Shown here: piece after piece, positions 1-63,144 of the stretch
Layout of the letters: each line of letters opens with the position of its first letter
Position numbering within the stretch: the first letter of the stretch is position 1
Virus record (IMG/VR): IMGVR_UViG_3300034355_001150
Coordinates: 1 to 64,000 of that record
Length of the DNA: 64,000 bases
Reading direction: 5' to 3' (one strand)
From: a virus
Position numbers and translations under genes: made by a program
Notes under the pieces: model-generated
Seen by the model: only the letters and a program-made list of their open reading frames with translations
The model's database searches: none
What the model was told of the DNA's origin: nothing

Positions 1-25
1 AGAAGCAGTTACCACCGTATCCCAT
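1..25 (-). CDS. N-terminal fragment of another methyltransferase copy (runs off left edge)
   Basis: Only the first eight codons (MGYGGNCF) lie in the window. They are identical in DNA and protein to the start of the methyltransferase at 949-1791, because 1-127 is an exact copy of 1767-1893. A sigma70-type promoter at 140-168 and the truncated ORF at 44-133 lie directly upstream. The gene body is outside the window, so function is inferred only from identity to the complete paralogue. It may also be a strain variant or an assembly-graph artefact. Confidence 0.45.
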
Positions 26-127
26 TACAAATCTCCGAATAAGTTATTCTTCTGTAGTTTCGGTGAGTTCTTCGGTTTTTTCCGGCAAGGAATGACCATT
101 TTCATGAAATAGCCTCTCCATAACATT
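1..127. repeat. Exact 127-bp repeat, copy A (identical to 1767-1893)
   Basis: Positions 1-127 match 1767-1893 base for base (offset 1766) and diverge at 128. The repeat holds the 3' end of a small conserved gene and the start of a methyltransferase. It begins exactly at the window edge, and 127 is a common maximum k-mer of short-read assemblers. The edge may therefore be a contig end produced by a repeat or strain branch rather than a true triplication. Confidence 0.9.
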
Positions 128-133
128 AACCAT
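44..133 (-). pseudogene. Truncated duplicate of the 98-aa gene (C-terminal 29 codons)
   Basis: A 29-codon ORF (ATG at 133, TAA at 44-46) keeps the reading frame of the last 25 or so residues of the complete gene at 1810-2106. Sequence upstream of 128 is unrelated to that gene and instead carries a good promoter. It looks like the footprint of a recombination that replaced the 5' three quarters of the gene with a promoter. Whether the peptide is made is unknown. Confidence 0.5.
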
Positions 134-139
134 GTGAGA

Positions 140-168
140 ATTGTACATAATGTTTTCCTAAATGTCAA
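140..168 (-). promoter_or_regulatory. sigma70-type promoter
   Basis: On the minus strand TTGACA (163-168) and TACAAT (140-145) are separated by 17 bp. It points at the truncated ORF at 44-133 and the methyltransferase copy that leaves the window. It matches the family of near-consensus promoters found elsewhere in this window. Confidence 0.65.
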
Positions 169-175
169 TCTTTTT

Positions 176-949
176 TTAATATTTTATCATTTTTATGGTT
201 TTTATGTTGGCAAATCCACTAAAGCGACAATGAACATTTATAACATCAATACAGTCCGTTAATCTTTTCTTTACTTTTTGAGCCTCTGGTTCAGTGTTGA
301 CATGAATATATACATACAATCTATGATCGGATGATCCCATATTGGGGGCCGAGTTTCCGTTGAGAATTACGATATTCTCGTTGCTCGCAGACCTGGTCAA
401 CGGAACACATACTCTAAGATCGGACGTGTTACACTGATCTATCTTGAACTCTCTAACTAGATTATCAGTTACGCTTAGTTCTGTTGCAACTCTGAGATGG
501 CCGCTTTTTGGCAAGAATCCCAATGTTGTGTCCTCTCCACTAACAAATCGCAATCCATCAGTGCCACCTTTGTTGACGATAACTACACCAAAAGTTGATC
601 CAACTCCTGCAAAATGTTTCGCAATAGATGTAACATCAGCTAAACTACTGTATCTATTAAATATATTCCAAAGTCTTGTTTCTTCATGAAGTTTATCTGG
701 CACTTTAAAATCATCCGAAGGCGAAGTCCAAGAAGTCGGTGTAATCAAAGATATTATCCCATTATCTGTCGCAACTTCAATTGATTTAATCCAAAATTTG
801 CTCCATAGATTGCTTGCCTGATCCTTCCTCTTGCCCCCCGCTTTGGTGCTTTGGAACGGAGGATTACCTACCACTATGTCAAATTTCATATCTGTTTCCC
901 ATGTCAAAAAGTCGGCTCTGATTACGTTCTTGAACCGGCCATGCAACAT
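176..949 (-). CDS. Adenine-methyltransferase-like protein lacking the SAM-binding half
   Basis: A 257-residue protein. Its first 32 residues are identical to residues 83-114 of the neighbouring methyltransferase and end in the catalytic NPPF motif (residues 29-32). The rest resembles the C-terminal part of Eco57I/type IIG-like N6-adenine methylases, with TPTSW after motif IV. The N-terminal SAM-binding motif I (NVACGYGT in the neighbour) is absent, so alone it is unlikely to be active. The ATG at 949 overlaps the neighbour's TGA stop (949-951), suggesting translational coupling. It may be a swapped target-recognition half, a partner subunit, or a decaying copy. The in-frame TTG at 952 is a less likely start. 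Confidence 0.65.
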   Translation of the reverse strand: MLHGRFKNVIRADFLTWETDMKFDIVVGNPPFQSTKAGGKRKDQASNLWSKFWIKSIEVATDNGIISLITPTSWTSPSDDFKVPDKLHEETRLWNIFNRYSSLADVTSIAKHFAGVGSTFGVVIVNKGGTDGLRFVSGEDTTLGFLPKSGHLRVATELSVTDNLVREFKIDQCNTSDLRVCVPLTRSASNENIVILNGNSAPNMGSSDHRLYVYIHVNTEPEAQKVKKRLTDCIDVINVHCRFSGFANIKTIKMIKY

Positions 950-951
950 CA
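861..951. repeat. 91-bp near-identical repeat, copy A (matches 1457-1547)
   Basis: This segment encodes the shared stretch ending in NPPF in both methyltransferase ORFs. The two copies differ at only about four positions, all silent, while flanking sequence is unrelated. Such a block is a natural crossover point for exchanging the downstream halves of the genes. Confidence 0.85.
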
Positions 952-1791
952 ATTTTCAATATATATTTTTATCAGATCATGCTTTGATAGACATGGCATA
1001 CCAACAGTTTCACATGCTGCTCGCCTGAGTAAAGGATACAATCTTTTTAATTTTTCCGTTACGTCGTCATTAGCAACTCTTAAAAAGTAATGATCTGCTT
1101 TGTAGTGTAGGAAATTTTCAGTCTTAACTTTTGCACATGGTCCATTTCCAACCCGACCAACAAAAACATTCGCTTCAGATTTATCAACGAATTTAAAATC
1201 CCGATGAGTAGTGAATCGTTCATGTATCGCTCTTTTTTCCGACTCAACTCGCCAGTGTTGCCAACATGTAATAATACCGCCACCAAATGAGCTATCAGGG
1301 TTATCGTGATCCTGTATCAAGTGTAAATGCCTATCAATTCGATTAACGTATGATATTTTACGCATAGTTTTGGGCAAAATCATATAAATTTCGTCGGAAA
1401 AGTTTTTTGCATGATTTAGGAATTTCATAGCTAAATTGGCATTTTTTCCAAAAGGTGGATTGCCTACCACGATGTCAAATTTCATATCTGTTTCCCATGT
1501 CAAAAAGTCGGCTCTGATGACATTCTTGAACCGGCCATGCAACATCATGCGATTAGTTGCCCATATTGCCTTATCAAGAACATATATGCGATTATTTATG
1601 TAATCATCTTCAAAGCCTAATTTTCGCATTCGGCGAACGATCACTATCGACTCAGTTCCATATCCACAAGCAACATTCAGTATCTTAATATCTGGATTTA
1701 GAAATACCTCATCGGGTATTTTGTCAATGATTTCTGTCCACAAATCAATACTATCGGGATCGCCCAAGAAGCAGTTACCACCGTATCCCAT
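949..1791 (-). CDS. N6-adenine DNA methyltransferase
   Basis: A 280-residue protein with a class I methyltransferase layout: SAM-binding motif I (NVACGYGT, residues 39-46) and catalytic motif IV NPPF (111-114), which is typical of N6-adenine methylation. It probably methylates phage DNA to evade restriction or mark replicated DNA. The start is supported by a CGGAGA ribosome-binding site before the ATG at 1791. It lies downstream of the clamp-loader gene and the 98-aa gene on the same strand. Its end overlaps the start of a second methyltransferase-like ORF with which it shares a near-identical 91-bp block, and its 5' end is repeated at the window edge. Specificity cannot be read from sequence. 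Confidence 0.8.
   Translation of the reverse strand: MGYGGNCFLGDPDSIDLWTEIIDKIPDEVFLNPDIKILNVACGYGTESIVIVRRMRKLGFEDDYINNRIYVLDKAIWATNRMMLHGRFKNVIRADFLTWETDMKFDIVVGNPPFGKNANLAMKFLNHAKNFSDEIYMILPKTMRKISYVNRIDRHLHLIQDHDNPDSSFGGGIITCWQHWRVESEKRAIHERFTTHRDFKFVDKSEANVFVGRVGNGPCAKVKTENFLHYKADHYFLRVANDDVTEKLKRLYPLLRRAACETVGMPCLSKHDLIKIYIEN
1457..1547. repeat. 91-bp near-identical repeat, copy B (matches 861-951)
   Basis: Second copy of the methyltransferase core block, here inside the complete gene. The encoded peptide is identical to that of copy A. Confidence 0.85.
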
Positions 1792-1893
1792 TACAAATCT
1801 CCGAATAAGTTATTCTTCTGTAGTTTCGGTGAGTTCTTCGGTTTTTTCCGGCAAGGAATGACCATTTTCATGAAATAGCCTCTCCATAACATT
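1767..1893. repeat. Exact 127-bp repeat, copy B (identical to 1-127)
   Basis: Internal copy spanning the methyltransferase start codon (1791) and the last codons of the 98-aa gene. It is embedded in intact genes, so this is probably the ancestral arrangement. Confidence 0.9.
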
Positions 1894-2106
1894 TTTATAA
1901 TGTTCGTAGTAATAGCCCACGATAGTATCCCAATCTTTTGATACCACACTACTATCAATAATAGCTTTAATGATTTTTTGATCTCTAAAGTCCATAATCA
2001 GATTGGCTTCTGATACATCTTTAGTCTTCAGATTTTTCAGAATCTTAACAGACTCATCAAATTGACCATTCGCTTTTTTATAATATGTAATTGAAAAATA
2101 TCTCAT
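1810..2106 (-). CDS. Conserved small phage protein downstream of gp44
   Basis: A 98-residue protein with an acidic, threonine/glutamate-rich tail. It sits directly after the clamp-loader ATPase gene on the same strand, the place where T4 has gene 62, but I see no gp62 similarity. From memory, similar short proteins occur in T4-like cyanophages; no function is known to me. An AAGGTA ribosome-binding site precedes the ATG. The C-terminal 25 or so codons are duplicated at 44-133. Confidence 0.7.
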   Translation of the reverse strand: MRYFSITYYKKANGQFDESVKILKNLKTKDVSEANLIMDFRDQKIIKAIIDSSVVSKDWDTIVGYYYEHYKNVMERLFHENGHSLPEKTEELTETTEE

Positions 2107-3120: not shown

Positions 3121-3504
3121 TTAATTAGAAGATTTTGCTACGTGAACTGCTGTGCTCATCGTATCATCCTGAGGCGATTCATCACTGACCAACATAATAT
3201 CATTTGGATCTACTTTTCTAACGGTTTTTACTCCCGACTCGTCTTCTATCTCAATTCCGCGAGTCCATCTTCCATGACCAACTAAAATCCAATCACCCAC
3301 ACTAATCTCTTTTTGCTTTGGTCCGATTGCATATACTCGGCCCCATCTTGGTCTGATTCCCAAACTTGTTCCGTTGTCATTAAGCAACACCAAGCCTGAT
3401 TGAGTGATTCGCTCATCAAACACCATGCTTTCAACGATAACATCATTGTTGATAGCTTCAAAATTTTTATAGACTATTTTATGAGGCGAGAAGGCTGCTG
3501 TCAT
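3121..3504 (-). CDS. GroES/gp31-like co-chaperonin
   Basis: A 127-residue protein with the Cpn10 pattern. DVIVES (21-26) starts the first strand, a mobile-loop-like segment follows (28-50), then GRVYAIGP (55-62), SVGDWILV (68-75) and NDIMLVSDE (101-109), which correspond to the GroES positions GxVxAVGxG, VGDxVxF and DILAIVE. T4 gp31 (111 residues) replaces host GroES so that GroEL can fold the large capsid protein, and this protein may play that part. It overlaps the upstream gene by 4 bp (ATGA). A second, canonical GroES is encoded at 63145-63450, so this phage has two. Assignment is by motif alignment from memory. Confidence 0.72.
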   Translation of the reverse strand: MTAAFSPHKIVYKNFEAINNDVIVESMVFDERITQSGLVLLNDNGTSLGIRPRWGRVYAIGPKQKEISVGDWILVGHGRWTRGIEIEDESGVKTVRKVDPNDIMLVSDESPQDDTMSTAVHVAKSSN

Positions 3505-19565: not shown

Positions 19566-22500
19566 ATGGCATATCAAATTCAACTTCGTTCAGATACAGC
19601 TAATAACTGGACATACGTTAATCCAACGCTTGCTCAAGGCGAAGCAGGATACGAAACCAACACCGGCAATCTAAAAATCGGCGACGGTTCTACAGAGTGG
19701 GCTAACTTACCCTACTTTGCTGGCTCCGGTGGTGGTGGCAACGGAACACCCGGCGGAAGCAACGGAACGATTCAGTTTAATAACAATGGTTCATTTGACG
19801 GGAATCCTAATTTTATCATTGATTTAGCTAATAGTGTACTCTCAGTTACAGGAAATGTCAATGCAAATTATTTTATTGGTGATGGTAGTCTACTAACCAA
19901 TCTACCTGCTGGTAATTATTCCAACACCAATGTTCAATCGTTTTTAACCTCTGGCAATCTGGTCGGGAATATTATTCCAAGCGGCAATGCCATTTATTCT
20001 CTCGGTAATGCAACGAATCAATGGAAAGATTTATGGATCAGTAGCAATACGATTTATATTGATACTATTCCTCTGAGCACAAATAGCAATTCCGATCTTA
20101 CCTTTAATGGTAATCCGATTGTTACAGCCAATGCTGCTGCTAATGGCGCTACTAATGTCAACGAGCTATCGGTTAGCGGAAACGTATCAGCCACGAGCGC
20201 GAATATCGCGAATACTTCTATCGCCAATGGCAATGTAACTGCAAATTATTTTATTGGCGATGGATCATTGCTCACTAACATCAATTATTCCAATATTGTT
20301 GGTGCTTATGGTGATGCCAATGTTGCCAATTATCTATCTACTGTCAGTAATATCAATCTGACTGAAGTTAATGCTTCGGGTGATATCACTACTGGTGGTG
20401 TATTTTATGGTAATGGTGCTGGATTAACGAATATCCCTGCCTCTGCGATTATTGGCGCATATAGCAATGCTAATGTTGCTAATTATCTACCTACTTATAC
20501 TGGCGAATTTACTGCCGGTAACGCTAACGTAAGTGGCGAAGTAGTAGCTGGCGGCAACATCACAGCAGATTATTACTATGGTAATATTGCATTCACCACT
20601 GGTGGATACGGCGATAGTAATGTAGCTGCATTTTTACCCACTTATGGTGGTGATATTCTCGCCAATACAATTACAGCGAACAATGCCGCATTTGATAACA
20701 ATGTCAGCATTGCTGGCAATTTGGATGTAACCGGAAATACCAATTACACCAATGTTAATAATCTTCTCGTTGATGATCCTCTGATTTATGCTGGTGCTAA
20801 TAATATCAGCAATATCGTTGACCAAGGTTTAATCACACCATTTAATGATGGCACCCAACAGTATGGTGGATTTGTTCGTGATGCAAGCACTGGTGCTTGG
20901 AAGCTATTTGCGAATGTTACTGATGCACCCAATACCACGGTTAATTTTGCTAATGCAACGTATGTAGGATTACAAGCTGGTTGGTTTGCTGGAGATGGTG
21001 GCAATCTGAGCAATATCAATGCTGCTAACATCACTGGTAATATCTCATTAGCTAATGCTGATGTAACGGGTTCCGCTAATATTGGTGCCAATCTGTCAGT
21101 CGGTGGTAACATTATTTCCAATGGCAATATCACTGCTGATTATTTCATCGGCGATGGGAGCAATCTATCTAACATTCAATATTCAAGTTTGGTTGGCGCT
21201 TATGGTGATGCTAATGTTGCGGCATATCTGCCCACCAACACCAGTAACGTAGCTGCTGCATTTTTTATTGGTGATGGTAGTAAATTAAGCAATATCAATT
21301 ATGCGAATATTCCTGGTGCTTATTCTAATAGCAACGTTGCCGCCTATCTGGCTAATAGCAATGTTGTTATCAATACCTCCAACATCGTAAGTAATACAGC
21401 GAATATTGTGACTTTAACTGGCAATACCGCCAATATAACTACAATTACAAGTAATAGTATTACTGGCAATACCGCCAATTTAACTACTCTTCGTAGTAAT
21501 ACCATTAACGCAAATACTGTAACTGCGAATTATTTCAGCGGAGATGGAAGCAATTTATCTAACATTCAATATAGCAGCATCGTGGGTGCGTACAGCAATT
21601 CCAATGTTGCAAATTATTTACCGACTTATGCTGGTATTGTTACAGCCAGTGATGTAACTGCAACCGATACGATTACTGGTGATAGACTGACCACCGGCAA
21701 TTTATCAATGCAAGCTAACATAATCAGTTCAGTTGGCAGTAATATTACTATTGACCCAGGCAATGATGGTCTATCGGGCGGTAACGTCATTATCGCTGGT
21801 AATTTGCAAGTTGCTGGCAATGTAACCTATGTAAATGTTACAACTGCTGATACCGATAATTTAGTTTGGGTAGCTGCTAATAATGCTTCTACACCATCTG
21901 CTGCTACCGGTGGTGGTTTAGCGGTTGGTCCAGCAACGAATCCTTATGCTACATTCTTATATAATGCTGCTCAAAATATTTGGGTCAGCAATCTATCGCT
22001 TGGCGTAAACGGTGGTGCTAATTTCAGTGGCGCTCTTACAGGGGTCACCAACATTACAGCAAATGGCAATATCACTGGTGCTTATATTCGCGGCGATGGT
22101 AGCAACCTGTCTAACATTCAATACAGCAATCTGATTGGTGCTTACAGCAATGCCAACGTAGCGAGCTACTTGAGTAGCAATTTGGTATCAACTAATGTTA
22201 AAACTTCAGCTAATGTACAAGCTGCGTTCTTTATTGGCGATGGTGGATTCTTAACCAATGTTTCCGGTGGTGGTAGTAATTATTCAAATGCAAATGTTGC
22301 TGCATATCTGCCAACTGATTCTACAATTTCTGTTATCAATGGTAATGTCGCCAATACTAATAGCAATGTCAGTAACTTAACCGATAGTTTAGCCAACACC
22401 AATAGTAATGTTACTTTTATAACAAATGGTTTGGCGAATACCAATAGTAATGTCAGTAACTTAGCTAATAGTTTAGCTAATACTAATAGTAATGTTGCTA

Positions 22501-40893: not shown

Positions 40894-42006
40894 CTAAATT
40901 TGTGGCGGCCAATTCTTTTTACGGTTACCAGCAATCTCCCCAGTTAACCATCTGGGATCATCTTTGGTTGTCCTAAACATATTACCTTGCAAATCCTTCA
41001 CAACCATAGTATCTTTGGCGTGTCCAACCATTTCTCCTGAAATCCATCTTGGATCATCTGCGTTGATGTGGTGAATGACGCCATGTTCATCTCTTGCTTT
41101 TATGGTACCATTGGTGGTACTAACTAACTCACCCGATAGCCGTCGTGGATCATCTATTGCTATATGGTGGACTTTGCCGTTCTGATCTTTAGCAGGCATC
41201 ATGCCTTTAGTGGTGCCGAATAGTTCTCCTGATAACCATTCAGGGTCATCTTTGCCGACGACACGAACCCTTCCGTTTTTATCTCTTGTCGCCACTTTTC
41301 CAGTCGAGATACTAACCAATTCACCCGACAAACGCCGAGGATCATCCATACTGATACGATAAATGTTTCCGTCTTTATCTTTAGCTGGCATCATACCTTT
41401 ATTGATTCCGACTAATTCACCCGACAAACGCCGAGGATCATCCATATTGATATGATAAATGTTTCCATCTTTATCTTTAGCTGGCATCATTCCTTTAAAA
41501 ATATGCATAATATTACCAGTCTGTATTCTCGGGTCATCTATTGATACTCGCATTAAGTTTCCGTCTTTATCTTTAGCTGGCATCATACCTTTATTGATTC
41601 CGACTAATTCACCCGACAAACGACGTGGATCATCAAGTGATACAAAATAGACAAACCCATCTTTATCACACACAGATACCTTTCCAGTAACATAACACTT
41701 GTAACAATCAGATTTATTTAACCACTTATCATCGGCAACCACTTTAAGTCGACGCAAAACTTTATGCTCCCACAGTACTGCGTCATCTGGCGTAGAGAAG
41801 CCTTGGCGTCTGATCTGAATGATATCAGGATCACCGTGTTGTTCTCGGAACTTGGCTACATACTTGCTCGACGTCTGGTATTTAACCCAGAATAAGCCGG
41901 GATCGGCATCTTTTCCATACTTGCTTCCATAATACCAAACATTTAGCCAGGACCAGCCGATCAGGTAGGTATAGTAAATAGGTGTTTTTAATTTTTTGGT
42001 TGCCAT
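40894..42006 (-). CDS. GIY-YIG endonuclease-like protein with eight 32-residue repeats
   Basis: A 370-residue protein. The N-terminal domain (about 10-95) follows the GIY-YIG nuclease pattern: YYTYLIGWS...VWYYGSKYG, an arginine-rich middle (FREQHGD..IIQIRR) and the glutamate in AVLWEHKVLRRL. Residues 108-363 are eight consecutive repeats of exactly 32 residues of the type GMMPAKDKDGNIYRISMDDP followed by RRLSGELVGINK. Repeats of this kind follow nuclease domains in homing-type enzymes of T4-like phages and probably bind DNA. It lies against the direction of the fibre locus, as expected of a mobile gene inserted between structural genes. Late promoter at 42146-42153. Confidence 0.75.
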   Translation of the reverse strand: MATKKLKTPIYYTYLIGWSWLNVWYYGSKYGKDADPGLFWVKYQTSSKYVAKFREQHGDPDIIQIRRQGFSTPDDAVLWEHKVLRRLKVVADDKWLNKSDCYKCYVTGKVSVCDKDGFVYFVSLDDPRRLSGELVGINKGMMPAKDKDGNLMRVSIDDPRIQTGNIMHIFKGMMPAKDKDGNIYHINMDDPRRLSGELVGINKGMMPAKDKDGNIYRISMDDPRRLSGELVSISTGKVATRDKNGRVRVVGKDDPEWLSGELFGTTKGMMPAKDQNGKVHHIAIDDPRRLSGELVSTTNGTIKARDEHGVIHHINADDPRWISGEMVGHAKDTMVVKDLQGNMFRTTKDDPRWLTGEIAGNRKKNWPPQI

Positions 42007-42650: not shown

Positions 42651-45600
42651 ATGGCATCAGAAATTCAATTACGCAGAGACACGTCCAATAACTGGATAGC
42701 TATCAATCCACTGCTTGCTCAAGGCGAGATCGGTATCGATTTAACAACAAATCAGATAAAGATAGGCACAGGGGTAGATAACTGGGTGGACCTTCCCTAC
42801 TTCGGTGGCGGAAATGGCACTGGTGGCTATGGCAATTCAAATGTTGAAGCATTCTTAGCATCAGCGAGAGTGAGCAACATCATTCCGGACGGAAATGCGA
42901 TCTATTCATTAGGCAATGCTACGAATCAATGGAAGGATTTATGGATCAGTAGTAATACAATCTACATGAATACCATTCCTATCAGTTTAACCAACACAAA
43001 TGATTTAACCGTAAATGGCAATCCTGTTGTAACTGCCAATTCTGCTGCCAATGGTGCTACTAATGTCAATGCAATCTCTGTATCGGGTAATCTATCGGCT
43101 CAAGAAGCTACAATTGCTAATACAACTATCAGCAATGGCAATATTACTGCTAATTATTTTATTGGTGATGGTAGTCTATTAACTGGTTTACCCGCTGGTT
43201 ATGCCAACTCTGATGCTGCCAATTATTTTGCAAGTGGTAATGTTACCACCAATGTTATTACTAGCGGAAATATCGCTGCCGGTTACTTTATTGGCGATGG
43301 TAGCCAATTAACTGGTTTACCTGCTGGTTATGCCAATTCTAATGTCGCTGACTATTTTGCAAGTGGTAATGTTACCACCGATGTTATTACTAGCGGCAAT
43401 GTAACTGCAAATTATTTCTTGGGCAACATTGCTTTTGCTTCAGGGGGTTACAGCAATACCGATGTTGCTGCCTATTTGGCCAACAATACTGGCGGTGAAA
43501 TTGTTAGTAATGTTATTGTTAGTAACACTGTAACTACTACTGATATCATAGCAAATGGAGAAATTTCAACTACTGGCGTTGTCATCTCTAACGGCAATAT
43601 CACCATTGGTGAAACGCTAACAAGTAATTCTGTCGTGAGCAATATTTTCGTGGGTGGTGATTTTAGCGGAGATGGTGGCAATCTATCCAATATCCAATAT
43701 TCATCAATAGTTGGCGCTTACGGAGATAGCAACGTAGCTCTTTATCTTGAGAGCGGCAACCTATCAACGGAGATTGTTAGCACTAATAGTATTACGGCTG
43801 CTCAGTTTTTCGGAGACGGGTATAATCTATCTAATTTAAATCTTGCAAATGCAACAGGCGGTTATGGCAATAGTGATGTTGCTAATTATCTTCCAACGGA
43901 TTCCACTATCATTGCAATCAATAGCAATATAGCAAATACAGATGCTAATGTAGCCAATATTATTGTTGATATTGCTAACACCAATGCAAACGTAGCTAAC
44001 ACAGACTCCAATGTAGCCAATATTATTGTTGATATCGCTAATACTAACAGCAATGTAGCTAACATTGTTATTGATATTGCTAACACCAATGCAAACGTAG
44101 CTAACACAGACTCCAATGTAGCCAATATCATTGTTGATATCGCTAATACTAACAGCAATGTAGCCAATACCGATTCTAATGTAGCTAATATCGTTCTGAA
44201 CATCGCTAATACTAATGCGAACGTAGCGAATACCGATAGTAATGTAGCTAATATTATCCTAAGTATTGCAAATACCAATGCAAATGTAACTAATGTCAGT
44301 GCCAATGTAGCCAATACCGATTCTAATGTAGCCAATATTATTGTTGATATCGCTAATACTAACAGCAATGTAGCCAATACCGACAGCAATGTAGCCAACA
44401 ATGCTTCTAATATTCTTACACTACAAGGTCAAGTTTATTCAAACGTAAATGCTGCCGCGTATCTCGCCAATGCAAATACACAAGGAACAATCTACTCTGG
44501 TGATTTAACTATTGGCGCGGGTAATACTCTTGCCTTTGCCGAAGGTGGCTCAGTTGATTCTGTTACTGCCGCTGGATTTGAAGGCACTCTGACTATTAAC
44601 GGCAAAGCCAATAGAGGTATCTCTGTTACTGCCGGTGGTACTGTACCGGGTGCAAGTTATTCTCAGTTACAGTGGGTAGAAGATATCGCCAATTATGACC
44701 CTTATGGCGCACCTAATTCTATCACGAACTGGGTTTATGTCCAAAATGACGGTATCTATCTTCAGAATATTGATACGCTAAACTCACCCGGATATGATTA
44801 TCTATGGAAGTTTGCCGTTGATGGCAATCTAACATCACCTGGTAACATCATCAATGATGGTGATATCTATGCAAATGCTTATTACGGCGATGGTGGATTC
44901 TTATCTAACATCACTAGCAGTTATCAAGATGCTAATGTAGTTGCATTGTTACAAAGTGGCAATATCTCTACTCCGATTGTTACTACTAATGCTATTACAG
45001 GCAATACAGTGACAAGCACCAGCACAATTACGGCTGTTGATGCAAATATCGCCAACACAGTAATAGCTAATCTATTCATCGGTGACTTCCAAGGTAATAT
45101 CTCTGGTAATCTATCTGTTCCGGGTGCTAATACTCAGGTACTATTCAATGATAATGACGTGGCTGGTGCTGATGTTGGATTTACATATGATTCTGCTACC
45201 AAAACGGCCACAGTGGGCAACACCGTTGCTGCTGTTAATGTCGTTACAAGCGGACAAGTATTCTCTACGGGCAATATCACAAGTAATTCAACTGTTATCG
45301 CTAACACATTAAGTGTAGGTGCAAATAGTATCGCTATCGTTGATAATTTAATCAAGACAGCCTCCCAAACGATCACCATTGATCCAATCGGCGATGGTTC
45401 GGCGGCAGGTAATGTGGTGATTCAAGGCAACCTACAAGTTACTGGTAACTTAACATACGTTGATGTATCTACTGCTGTTACGAGTAACCTACTATGGCAA
45501 GCGGCCAATTCCGCTAATAGTCAAAGCGAAGCGTCGGGTGGTGGTTTAGCAGTTGGTCCCGGCAATACAGCTTATGCTACATGGACATACAACAGCGGAG

Positions 45601-61512: not shown

Positions 61513-63144
<1,632 letters not shown>

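What the first reader, a model, noticed from the sequence alone, without database searches (positions are those of the whole stretch)
1..1893. Methyltransferase locus shuffled through shared core blocks
Two adjacent methyltransferase ORFs share a 91-bp block, about 96 % identical, ending exactly at NPPF, and then diverge completely. The downstream ORF lacks the SAM-binding half. The start of a further copy is at the left edge behind its own promoter. This looks like a cassette in which C-terminal, target-recognising halves are exchanged by recombination in the conserved core, a possible way to change methylation specificity.
Basis: partly seen in the sequence, partly recalled or inferred. Interest (0 to 1): 0.6.

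Follow-up and report, generated by a model that had tools for sequence, protein, structure and literature searches.

The report
Phage methyltransferase with swappable target-reading halves
A large tailed phage carries repeated DNA-methyltransferase genes that share one half and differ completely in the half that presumably reads the DNA target, and the same layout in cultured marine phages suggests a widespread, little-noticed way for phages to change how they mark their DNA.

Summary
Two adjacent minus-strand ORFs (1791-949, 952-176) share 97 nt (94%) ending in the NPPF codons, then diverge. Bases 1-127 repeat 1767-1893 exactly, behind a promoter, but base 1 is the contig end. The same contig holds a second array at 68.7-74.3 kb: two more full genes with the same N part and three more C-half ORFs starting at or just before the same motif, all with different C parts. 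A separate gene nearby encodes the missing SAM-binding half (motifs X/I). In other phages X/I genes lie directly behind a motif-IV/target-recognition gene in 69 of 72 testable loci (bare half, full gene or helicase fusion), and tandem copies differing only after NPPY recur. In cultured cyanophages a constant X/I gene accompanies different halves, a bare half is under purifying selection, and 7 of 26 records carry an extra tandem half. Best reading: a split, modular N6-adenine methyltransferase whose catalytic/target half is exchanged by homologous recombination in the motif-IV block. Exchange is well supported; activity in trans and ongoing switching are inferred. The one alternative isoform found (L001) could be an assembly collapse.

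The parts
949..1791 (-). F6: full-length methyltransferase, N part (motif I, ILNVACGYG) + motif IV NPPF + C part 6
   Evidence: Eco57I E 7e-7, MTS E 4e-6; C part matches phrog_5172 and resembles, by eye, the stand-alone halves of S-CAM7 and P-SSM2
176..952 (-). H7: C-half ORF (motif IV + C part 7), no motif I; start overlaps the F6 stop as TGATG
1451..1547 (-). shared block in F6 (MMLHGRFKNVIRADFLTWETDMKFDIVVGNPPF)
   Evidence: D2
855..951 (-). shared block in H7, 94% identical to 1451-1547
1..127 (-). start of a further copy: 3' end of the upstream ORF, ribosome-binding region and first codons MGYGGNCF; cut by the contig end
   Evidence: 100% identical to 1767-1893; contig edge
140..168 (-). 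sigma-70-like promoter TTGACA-17-TACAAT in front of the third copy
   Evidence: sequence
1767..1893 (-). matching copy upstream of F6, running back into the 98-aa ORF
1810..2106 (-). 98-aa ORF upstream of F6; 15 relatives in phage contigs of up to 347 kb, none of the 14 records checked having an Eco57I-type gene

Best explanation
This is a modular N6-adenine DNA methyltransferase system of a large tailed phage. Its exchangeable unit is the half from motif IV (NPPY/F) through the target-recognition domain. That half occurs (a) fused behind a conserved SAM-binding N part, as F1, F4 and F6, and (b) as a bare gene starting at or just before motif IV, as H2, H3, H5 and H7. A separate 158-aa gene (contig 76556-77032) encodes motifs X and I, the piece the bare halves lack. 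Homologous recombination in the conserved N part or block inserts, deletes or swaps C halves, so the phage can keep several specificities and change them. SHOWN: the anatomy, the repeated block, mosaic N parts, the same layout in other phages, and isolate-level gain or replacement of halves beside a constant X/I gene. INFERRED: that bare halves are completed in trans by the X/I protein, that each C half sets a different target, that this protects phage DNA from host restriction or serves a phage-borne restriction system, and that phage homologous recombination does it.
For: Second array in the same contig: order X/I gene, two helicase-like ORFs, F1, H2, an unrelated gene, H3, F4, H5. N parts of F1, F4, F6 are 95-98% identical in protein while C parts are 19-25%. 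F1/F4 differ at 18/160 then 0/182 sites, p=7e-7. L001, otherwise 100% identical to the contig, joins the N part of F1 to the C part of F4, removing 3.6 kb. An alignment of X/I relatives gave 80 phage loci; in 69 of 72 testable ones the gene directly upstream, usually overlapping, is a motif-IV gene: full, bare half or helicase-fused. Tandem copies with like N and unlike C: L050 (N 94-96%, C down to 19%), L080 (N 92%, C 23%), L107 (bare halves sharing 26-39 nt). Like C with unlike N: L071/L084 (C 90%, N 20%, join at the block). S-CAM7 isolates: X/I gene 93-95% identical, neighbouring halves unrelated. ACG-2014f: bare half in all 26 records, dN/dS about 0.07-0.3 in informative pairs, X/I gene about 100 kb away; 7 of 26 records have an extra tandem half sharing only 36 nt. 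P-SSM2 has a bare half overlapping its X/I gene. AlphaFold2 of F1 (pLDDT 86.7, pTM 0.87) matches CamA, M.TaqI and M.BseCI.
Against: No activity, methylome or read-level data. L001 could be an assembly collapse, because the identical stretch (182 nt) exceeds a 127-mer. F1, F4 and F6 keep motif I and may not need the X/I gene; in relatives the G-loop pattern is kept in only 24 of 48 full-length N domains. In this phage the X/I gene heads the operon instead of following a half. Between unrelated loci the block is no more conserved at synonymous sites than background codon use predicts, so it is not a dedicated recombination site there. The Met just before KFD (41/51 full-length phage genes) also occurs in 18/46 cellular homologues, so it is not clean proof that full genes are fusions onto a bare half's start codon.
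Confidence: 0.66

Rival explanations
1. Silent-cassette archive: bare halves are not made as working subunits; they are stored C halves recombined into an expressed full-length gene, as in pilin or vlsE gene conversion.
For: In this phage most bare halves lie directly behind full genes and share the exchange block; L001 is the predicted deletion product.
Against: Bare halves in ACG-2014f, P-SSM2 and S-CAM7 have no full-length recipient directly beside them, stand next to or share a genome with a separate X/I gene, and (ACG-2014f) are under purifying selection. Bare-half starts in this phage overlap or closely follow the upstream stop codon (TGATG, ATGA), as for translated genes.
Confidence: 0.22
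2. Ordinary tandem duplication and decay: the halves are remnants of duplicated methyltransferases with no function in exchange.
For: H3 carries a degenerate remnant of the N part upstream; repeats alone do not prove function.
Against: All four bare halves here are uninterrupted for 258-303 codons. C parts are unrelated within otherwise near-identical genes, which duplication and drift do not give. The pattern recurs in unrelated phages.
Confidence: 0.07
3. Assembly artefact: the assembler joined variants from a mixed phage population at the shared blocks, making false tandem copies.
For: An exact 127-nt repeat at the contig edge; some blocks longer than a k-mer; L001 and the contig disagree.
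Against: The F6/H7 block (97 nt, 94%) is shorter and more divergent than a 127-mer overlap. Complete cyanophage isolate genomes show the same anatomy. Even if true, it would mean the variants coexist in the population.
Confidence: 0.08

Closest known systems
Domain movement / TRD exchange in Helicobacter pylori Type I S and Type III M genes (PMC3983042, PMC3077401)
   Same: Target-recognition sequences move between and within genes, probably by recombination at flanking repeats or at DNA encoding conserved methyltransferase motifs, changing specificity.
   Different: There it is bacterial and in genes of restriction-modification systems. Here it is phage-borne, the unit is the whole motif-IV-to-C-terminus half, it is tandemly arrayed, and it also exists as a bare gene with the SAM-binding half elsewhere.
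Gamma-class N6-adenine methyltransferases (M.TaqI, CamA, M.BseCI)
   Same: F1 has motif I before motif IV with a C-terminal recognition region; best PDB fold matches.
   Different: Those are known as single genes (my knowledge), not arrays; sequence identity is 12-17%.
Naturally split methyltransferases such as M.AquI, and fragment complementation of M.SssI/M.MpeI (PMC5944983)
   Same: A methyltransferase encoded in two pieces that can assemble.
   Different: [quoted passage not shown] Here the split lies just before motif IV, the breakpoint between gamma- and beta-order enzymes, and one X/I gene may serve several partners.
Multispecific phage C5 methyltransferases with modular TRDs (Trautner et al. 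1996, cited in PMC12707154)
   Same: Phage enzymes with several target-recognising domains.
   Different: There several TRDs sit in one polypeptide of a cytosine enzyme; here they are separate tandem genes of a predicted adenine enzyme.

Membership tests
Gamma-class (TaqI/CamA-like) N6-adenine methyltransferase, for F1, F4, F6 | motif I before motif IV [NDS]PP[YF] with C-terminal TRD | tested here: met
   NVACGYG then GNPPY/F; Eco57I/MTS Pfam hits; order read
Gamma-class (TaqI/CamA-like) N6-adenine methyltransferase, for F1, F4, F6 | fold of a class I methyltransferase with C-terminal recognition domain | tested here: met
   F1 AlphaFold2 pLDDT 86.7, pTM 0.87; CamA, TaqI, BseCI at E 1e-15 to 1e-10, TM to query about 0.5-0.6
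Gamma-class (TaqI/CamA-like) N6-adenine methyltransferase, for F1, F4, F6 | m6A activity | not testable with these tools
   no biochemistry
Gamma-class enzyme, for the bare halves H2, H3, H5, H7 | own SAM-binding motif I | tested here: not met
   ORFs start 0-21 residues before MKFDIVVGNPP; Eco57I matched only from profile position 63-73
Split (two-gene) methyltransferase | missing half encoded by another gene of the same genome | tested here: met
   X/I gene at contig 76556-77032 (N6_Mtase, phrog_21201, phrog_4376, phrog_11371 C part)
Split (two-gene) methyltransferase | the two polypeptides assemble into an active enzyme | not testable with these tools
   needs co-expression; only genomic linkage (69 of 72 loci) and selection are shown
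TRD exchange / domain movement | shared flank with unrelated recognition part among copies or strains | tested here: met
   N 92-98%, C 19-39% within loci; S-CAM7 and ACG-2014f isolates
TRD exchange / domain movement | changed methylation motif | not testable with these tools
   no methylome
Invertible phase-variable specificity locus | long inverted repeats flanking the exchanged part | tested here: not met
   only chance-level inverted pairs of 30 nt or less, 70-88% complementary; all copies are direct
Restriction-modification system | cognate nuclease in the operon | tested here: inconclusive
   helicase-like ORFs; one with a weak, below-cut-off MUG113 (GIY-YIG-like) hit, E 0.019; PADLOC gave only weak generic methyltransferase hits and no nuclease

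The most novel reading that the evidence does not exclude
A widespread class of split N6-adenine methyltransferases in large tailed phages, in which one constant SAM-binding subunit works with several interchangeable catalytic/target-recognition subunits from tandem arrays, broken at the motif III/IV circular-permutation point and diversified by recombination in the motif-IV block: a combinatorial, switchable phage methylome.
Probability: 0.42. Interest if true: 0.82.

Novelty: new variant of a known kind. Interest (0 to 1): 0.68.

Why it matters
If true, phages carry a modular system for changing DNA methylation specificity, a direct counter to the diversity of host restriction, hidden among 'hypothetical proteins' in well-known cyanophages such as P-SSM2 and S-CAM7. 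It would also show live intermediates (bare halves, gamma-order fusions here, a beta-order fusion in phage PX29 gp083) for the long-proposed circular permutation of DNA methyltransferases. It can be tested with isolates that already exist, and the exchangeable halves could be useful for engineering new methylation specificities.

Tried and rejected
A PF00145 (cytosine methylase) search of the contig found nothing; wrong family. The N part has no relative in the 50,697 annotated phage records at E 1e-3, and a search with the full-length alignment found none in cellular genomes. The idea that the ~36-nt block is a dedicated DNA site conserved across phages was rejected: synonymous codons there match background; only within-locus identity is informative. 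The idea that the Met before KFD proves fusion onto a start codon was weakened by the cellular control, 18/46. A first AlphaFold2 run with 9 sequences was useless (pLDDT 44); a 69-sequence alignment fixed it. Inversion-based switching was rejected (no long inverted repeats). Literature searches in the open-access library found no description of this arrangement; subscription papers were not covered, so absence is weak.

Full report
WHAT IS THERE. The window is the first 64,000 bases of an 89,766-bp IMG/VR record. The minus strand of 1-2106 reads: a 98-aa ORF (2106-1810), a full methyltransferase F6 (1791-949), a C-half ORF H7 (952-176), a promoter TTGACA-17-TACAAT (168-140) and the start of a further copy cut off by the contig end. 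F6 and H7 share 97 nt with 6 mismatches, ending in the NPPF codons. Bases 1-127 equal 1767-1893 exactly. An exact 127-nt match at a contig end is also what a k=127 assembler leaves at a branch, so the third copy is real sequence but its context is unknown.

A SECOND ARRAY IN THE SAME CONTIG. Blasting the first 2200 bases against the rest of the contig found further copies at 69.6-74.4 kb. On the minus strand the order is: X/I gene (contig 77032-76556, 158 aa), two helicase-like ORFs, F1 (74346-73240), H2 (73243-72419), an unrelated 217-aa ORF, H3 (71684-70815), F4 (70746-69649), H5 (69639-68728). F1, F4 and F6 share 95-98% of their N part in protein but only 19-25% of the C part; at DNA level the shared part stops within about 20 nt of the NPPY/F codons. 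The bare halves start 0-21 residues before MKFDIVVGNPP. Three of them overlap or closely follow the stop of the gene before (TGATG for F6/H7, ATGA for F1/H2, 12 nt after for F4/H5). H2 and H5 end in TTGACA...TATAAT promoters for the next gene.

RECOMBINATION SIGNS. Along the N part F1 and F4 differ at 18 of the first 160 nt and at none of the next 182, Fisher p=7e-7; F1 and F6 show no such break. Most codon differences are synonymous (13 of 15 for F1/F4). Contig L001 is 100% identical to this contig over 6.3 kb and again over the following part, but joins the N part of F1 to the C part of F4, lacking the 3.6 kb between. This is what a crossover in the identical 182 nt would give; an assembler could also make it, so it is not decisive. 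A third contig, L002/L003, ends inside the same N part and carries yet another C half, followed by a phoH-like gene (named by eye).

WHAT THE HALVES ARE. Pfam assigns Eco57I-type N6-adenine methylase to all. F1 modelled with a 69-sequence alignment (pLDDT 86.7, pTM 0.87) matches CamA, M.TaqI and M.BseCI, that is gamma order: motif I, motif IV, recognition domain. The bare halves lack motif I. PHROGs pointed to the rest: the 158-aa X/I gene matches stand-alone families phrog_21201 and phrog_4376 and the C part of phrog_11371, whose N part matches the F4 C half. In Aeromonas phage PX29 the two pieces are one chain in the opposite, beta, order. So the break between bare half and X/I gene falls where gamma and beta orders differ.

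RELATED PHAGES. An alignment of X/I proteins gave 80 IMG/VR loci, including L044, the locus of contig L001. Seventy-eight others were classed by HMM (L111, a fused 1,081-aa protein, set aside). Six are cut by the contig edge just upstream; of the remaining 72, 69 have a motif-IV gene directly upstream, usually overlapping (67, plus L087 and L107 on inspection; L087 rests on its length and position only). Among those 67 upstream genes, 40 have a 21-150-residue N part, 17 are fused to a helicase-length protein, 8 are bare halves and 2 are other. In full-length relatives a G-loop pattern is present in 24 of 48 N domains, consistent with the X/I gene being the working SAM-binding half in many. Tandem arrays with like N and unlike C parts occur in L050 (four genes), L080 (two) and L107 (bare halves sharing 26-39 nt). 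The converse, like C and unlike N, occurs in L071/L084 (C 90%, N 20%, similarity starting 40 nt before the end of NPPY), L067/L085 and L050/L072.

ISOLATES. Three isolates of Synechococcus phage S-CAM7 have X/I genes 93-95% identical at one locus beside unrelated motif-IV genes, and a second locus where one isolate has a different half. In ACG-2014f the X/I gene lies near 36 kb and a bare half near 137 kb; the half is present in all 26 records and under purifying selection (dN/dS roughly 0.07-0.3 in informative pairs). Seven of 26 records (two records are RefSeq duplicates) have an extra bare half directly upstream that shares only 36 nt at motif IV. P-SSM2 has a 193-aa bare half overlapping its X/I gene. 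These rule out an assembly artefact for the general pattern.

MECHANISM. Most likely each C half reads its own target and carries the catalytic motif; the N part or the X/I protein supplies SAM binding; homologous recombination in the repeated N part or block adds, removes or swaps C halves. Shown: anatomy, mosaicism, recurrence, isolate variation. Inferred: trans completion, distinct targets, purpose (protection from host restriction, or a phage-borne restriction system given the helicase-like neighbours), and the recombination machinery.

CONTROLS THAT TEMPERED CLAIMS. Between unrelated loci the block's codons follow background usage. The conserved Met before KFD is also common in cellular homologues (18/46 vs 41/51). 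No inverted repeats support inversion. No literature description was found in the open-access library, which does not cover subscription journals.

VERDICT. I call it a new variant of a known kind (TRD exchange), with a split-enzyme architecture in phages that I could not find described.

Noticed in passing
contig 75726-76568 and 74346-75701 (-), outside the window (L020 11726-12568, 10346-11701): A helicase-like gene appears split into two ORFs in the same frame, separated by three stop codons within nine codons; L001 is identical there. Whether this is a true split or decay is unclear.
   Followed up: partly
61513-63141 (-) and 3121-3504 (-): The phage encodes a GroEL-type chaperonin (phrog_5725, E 1e-172) and a short protein with a GroES co-chaperonin hit (phrog_3188, E 5e-6) alongside a better head-morphogenesis hit (phrog_931).
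   Followed up: no
15500-55800: Very long ORFs (up to 2,832 aa) hold many internal direct repeats, 65-94% identical, some shared between genes over 20 kb apart (e.g. 19968-20263 and 42876-43171); probably tail or adhesin proteins with shuffled repeats.
   Followed up: no
40894-42006 (-): HNH endonuclease (phrog_12434, E 8e-45) among the long structural ORFs.
   Followed up: no
contig 71736-72389 (-), outside the window: An unrelated 217-aa ORF with no Pfam or PHROG match sits between bare halves H2 and H3 inside the methyltransferase array.
   Followed up: no
L025 8030-8641, L168 2436-2999: Cyanophages S-CAM7 (KU686213) and Bellamy have similar-looking ~190-200-aa ORFs near the X/I gene with a possible PD-(D/E)xK nuclease signature (read by eye; no significant Pfam hit for the S-CAM7 one), hinting at a phage-borne restriction module.
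   Followed up: no
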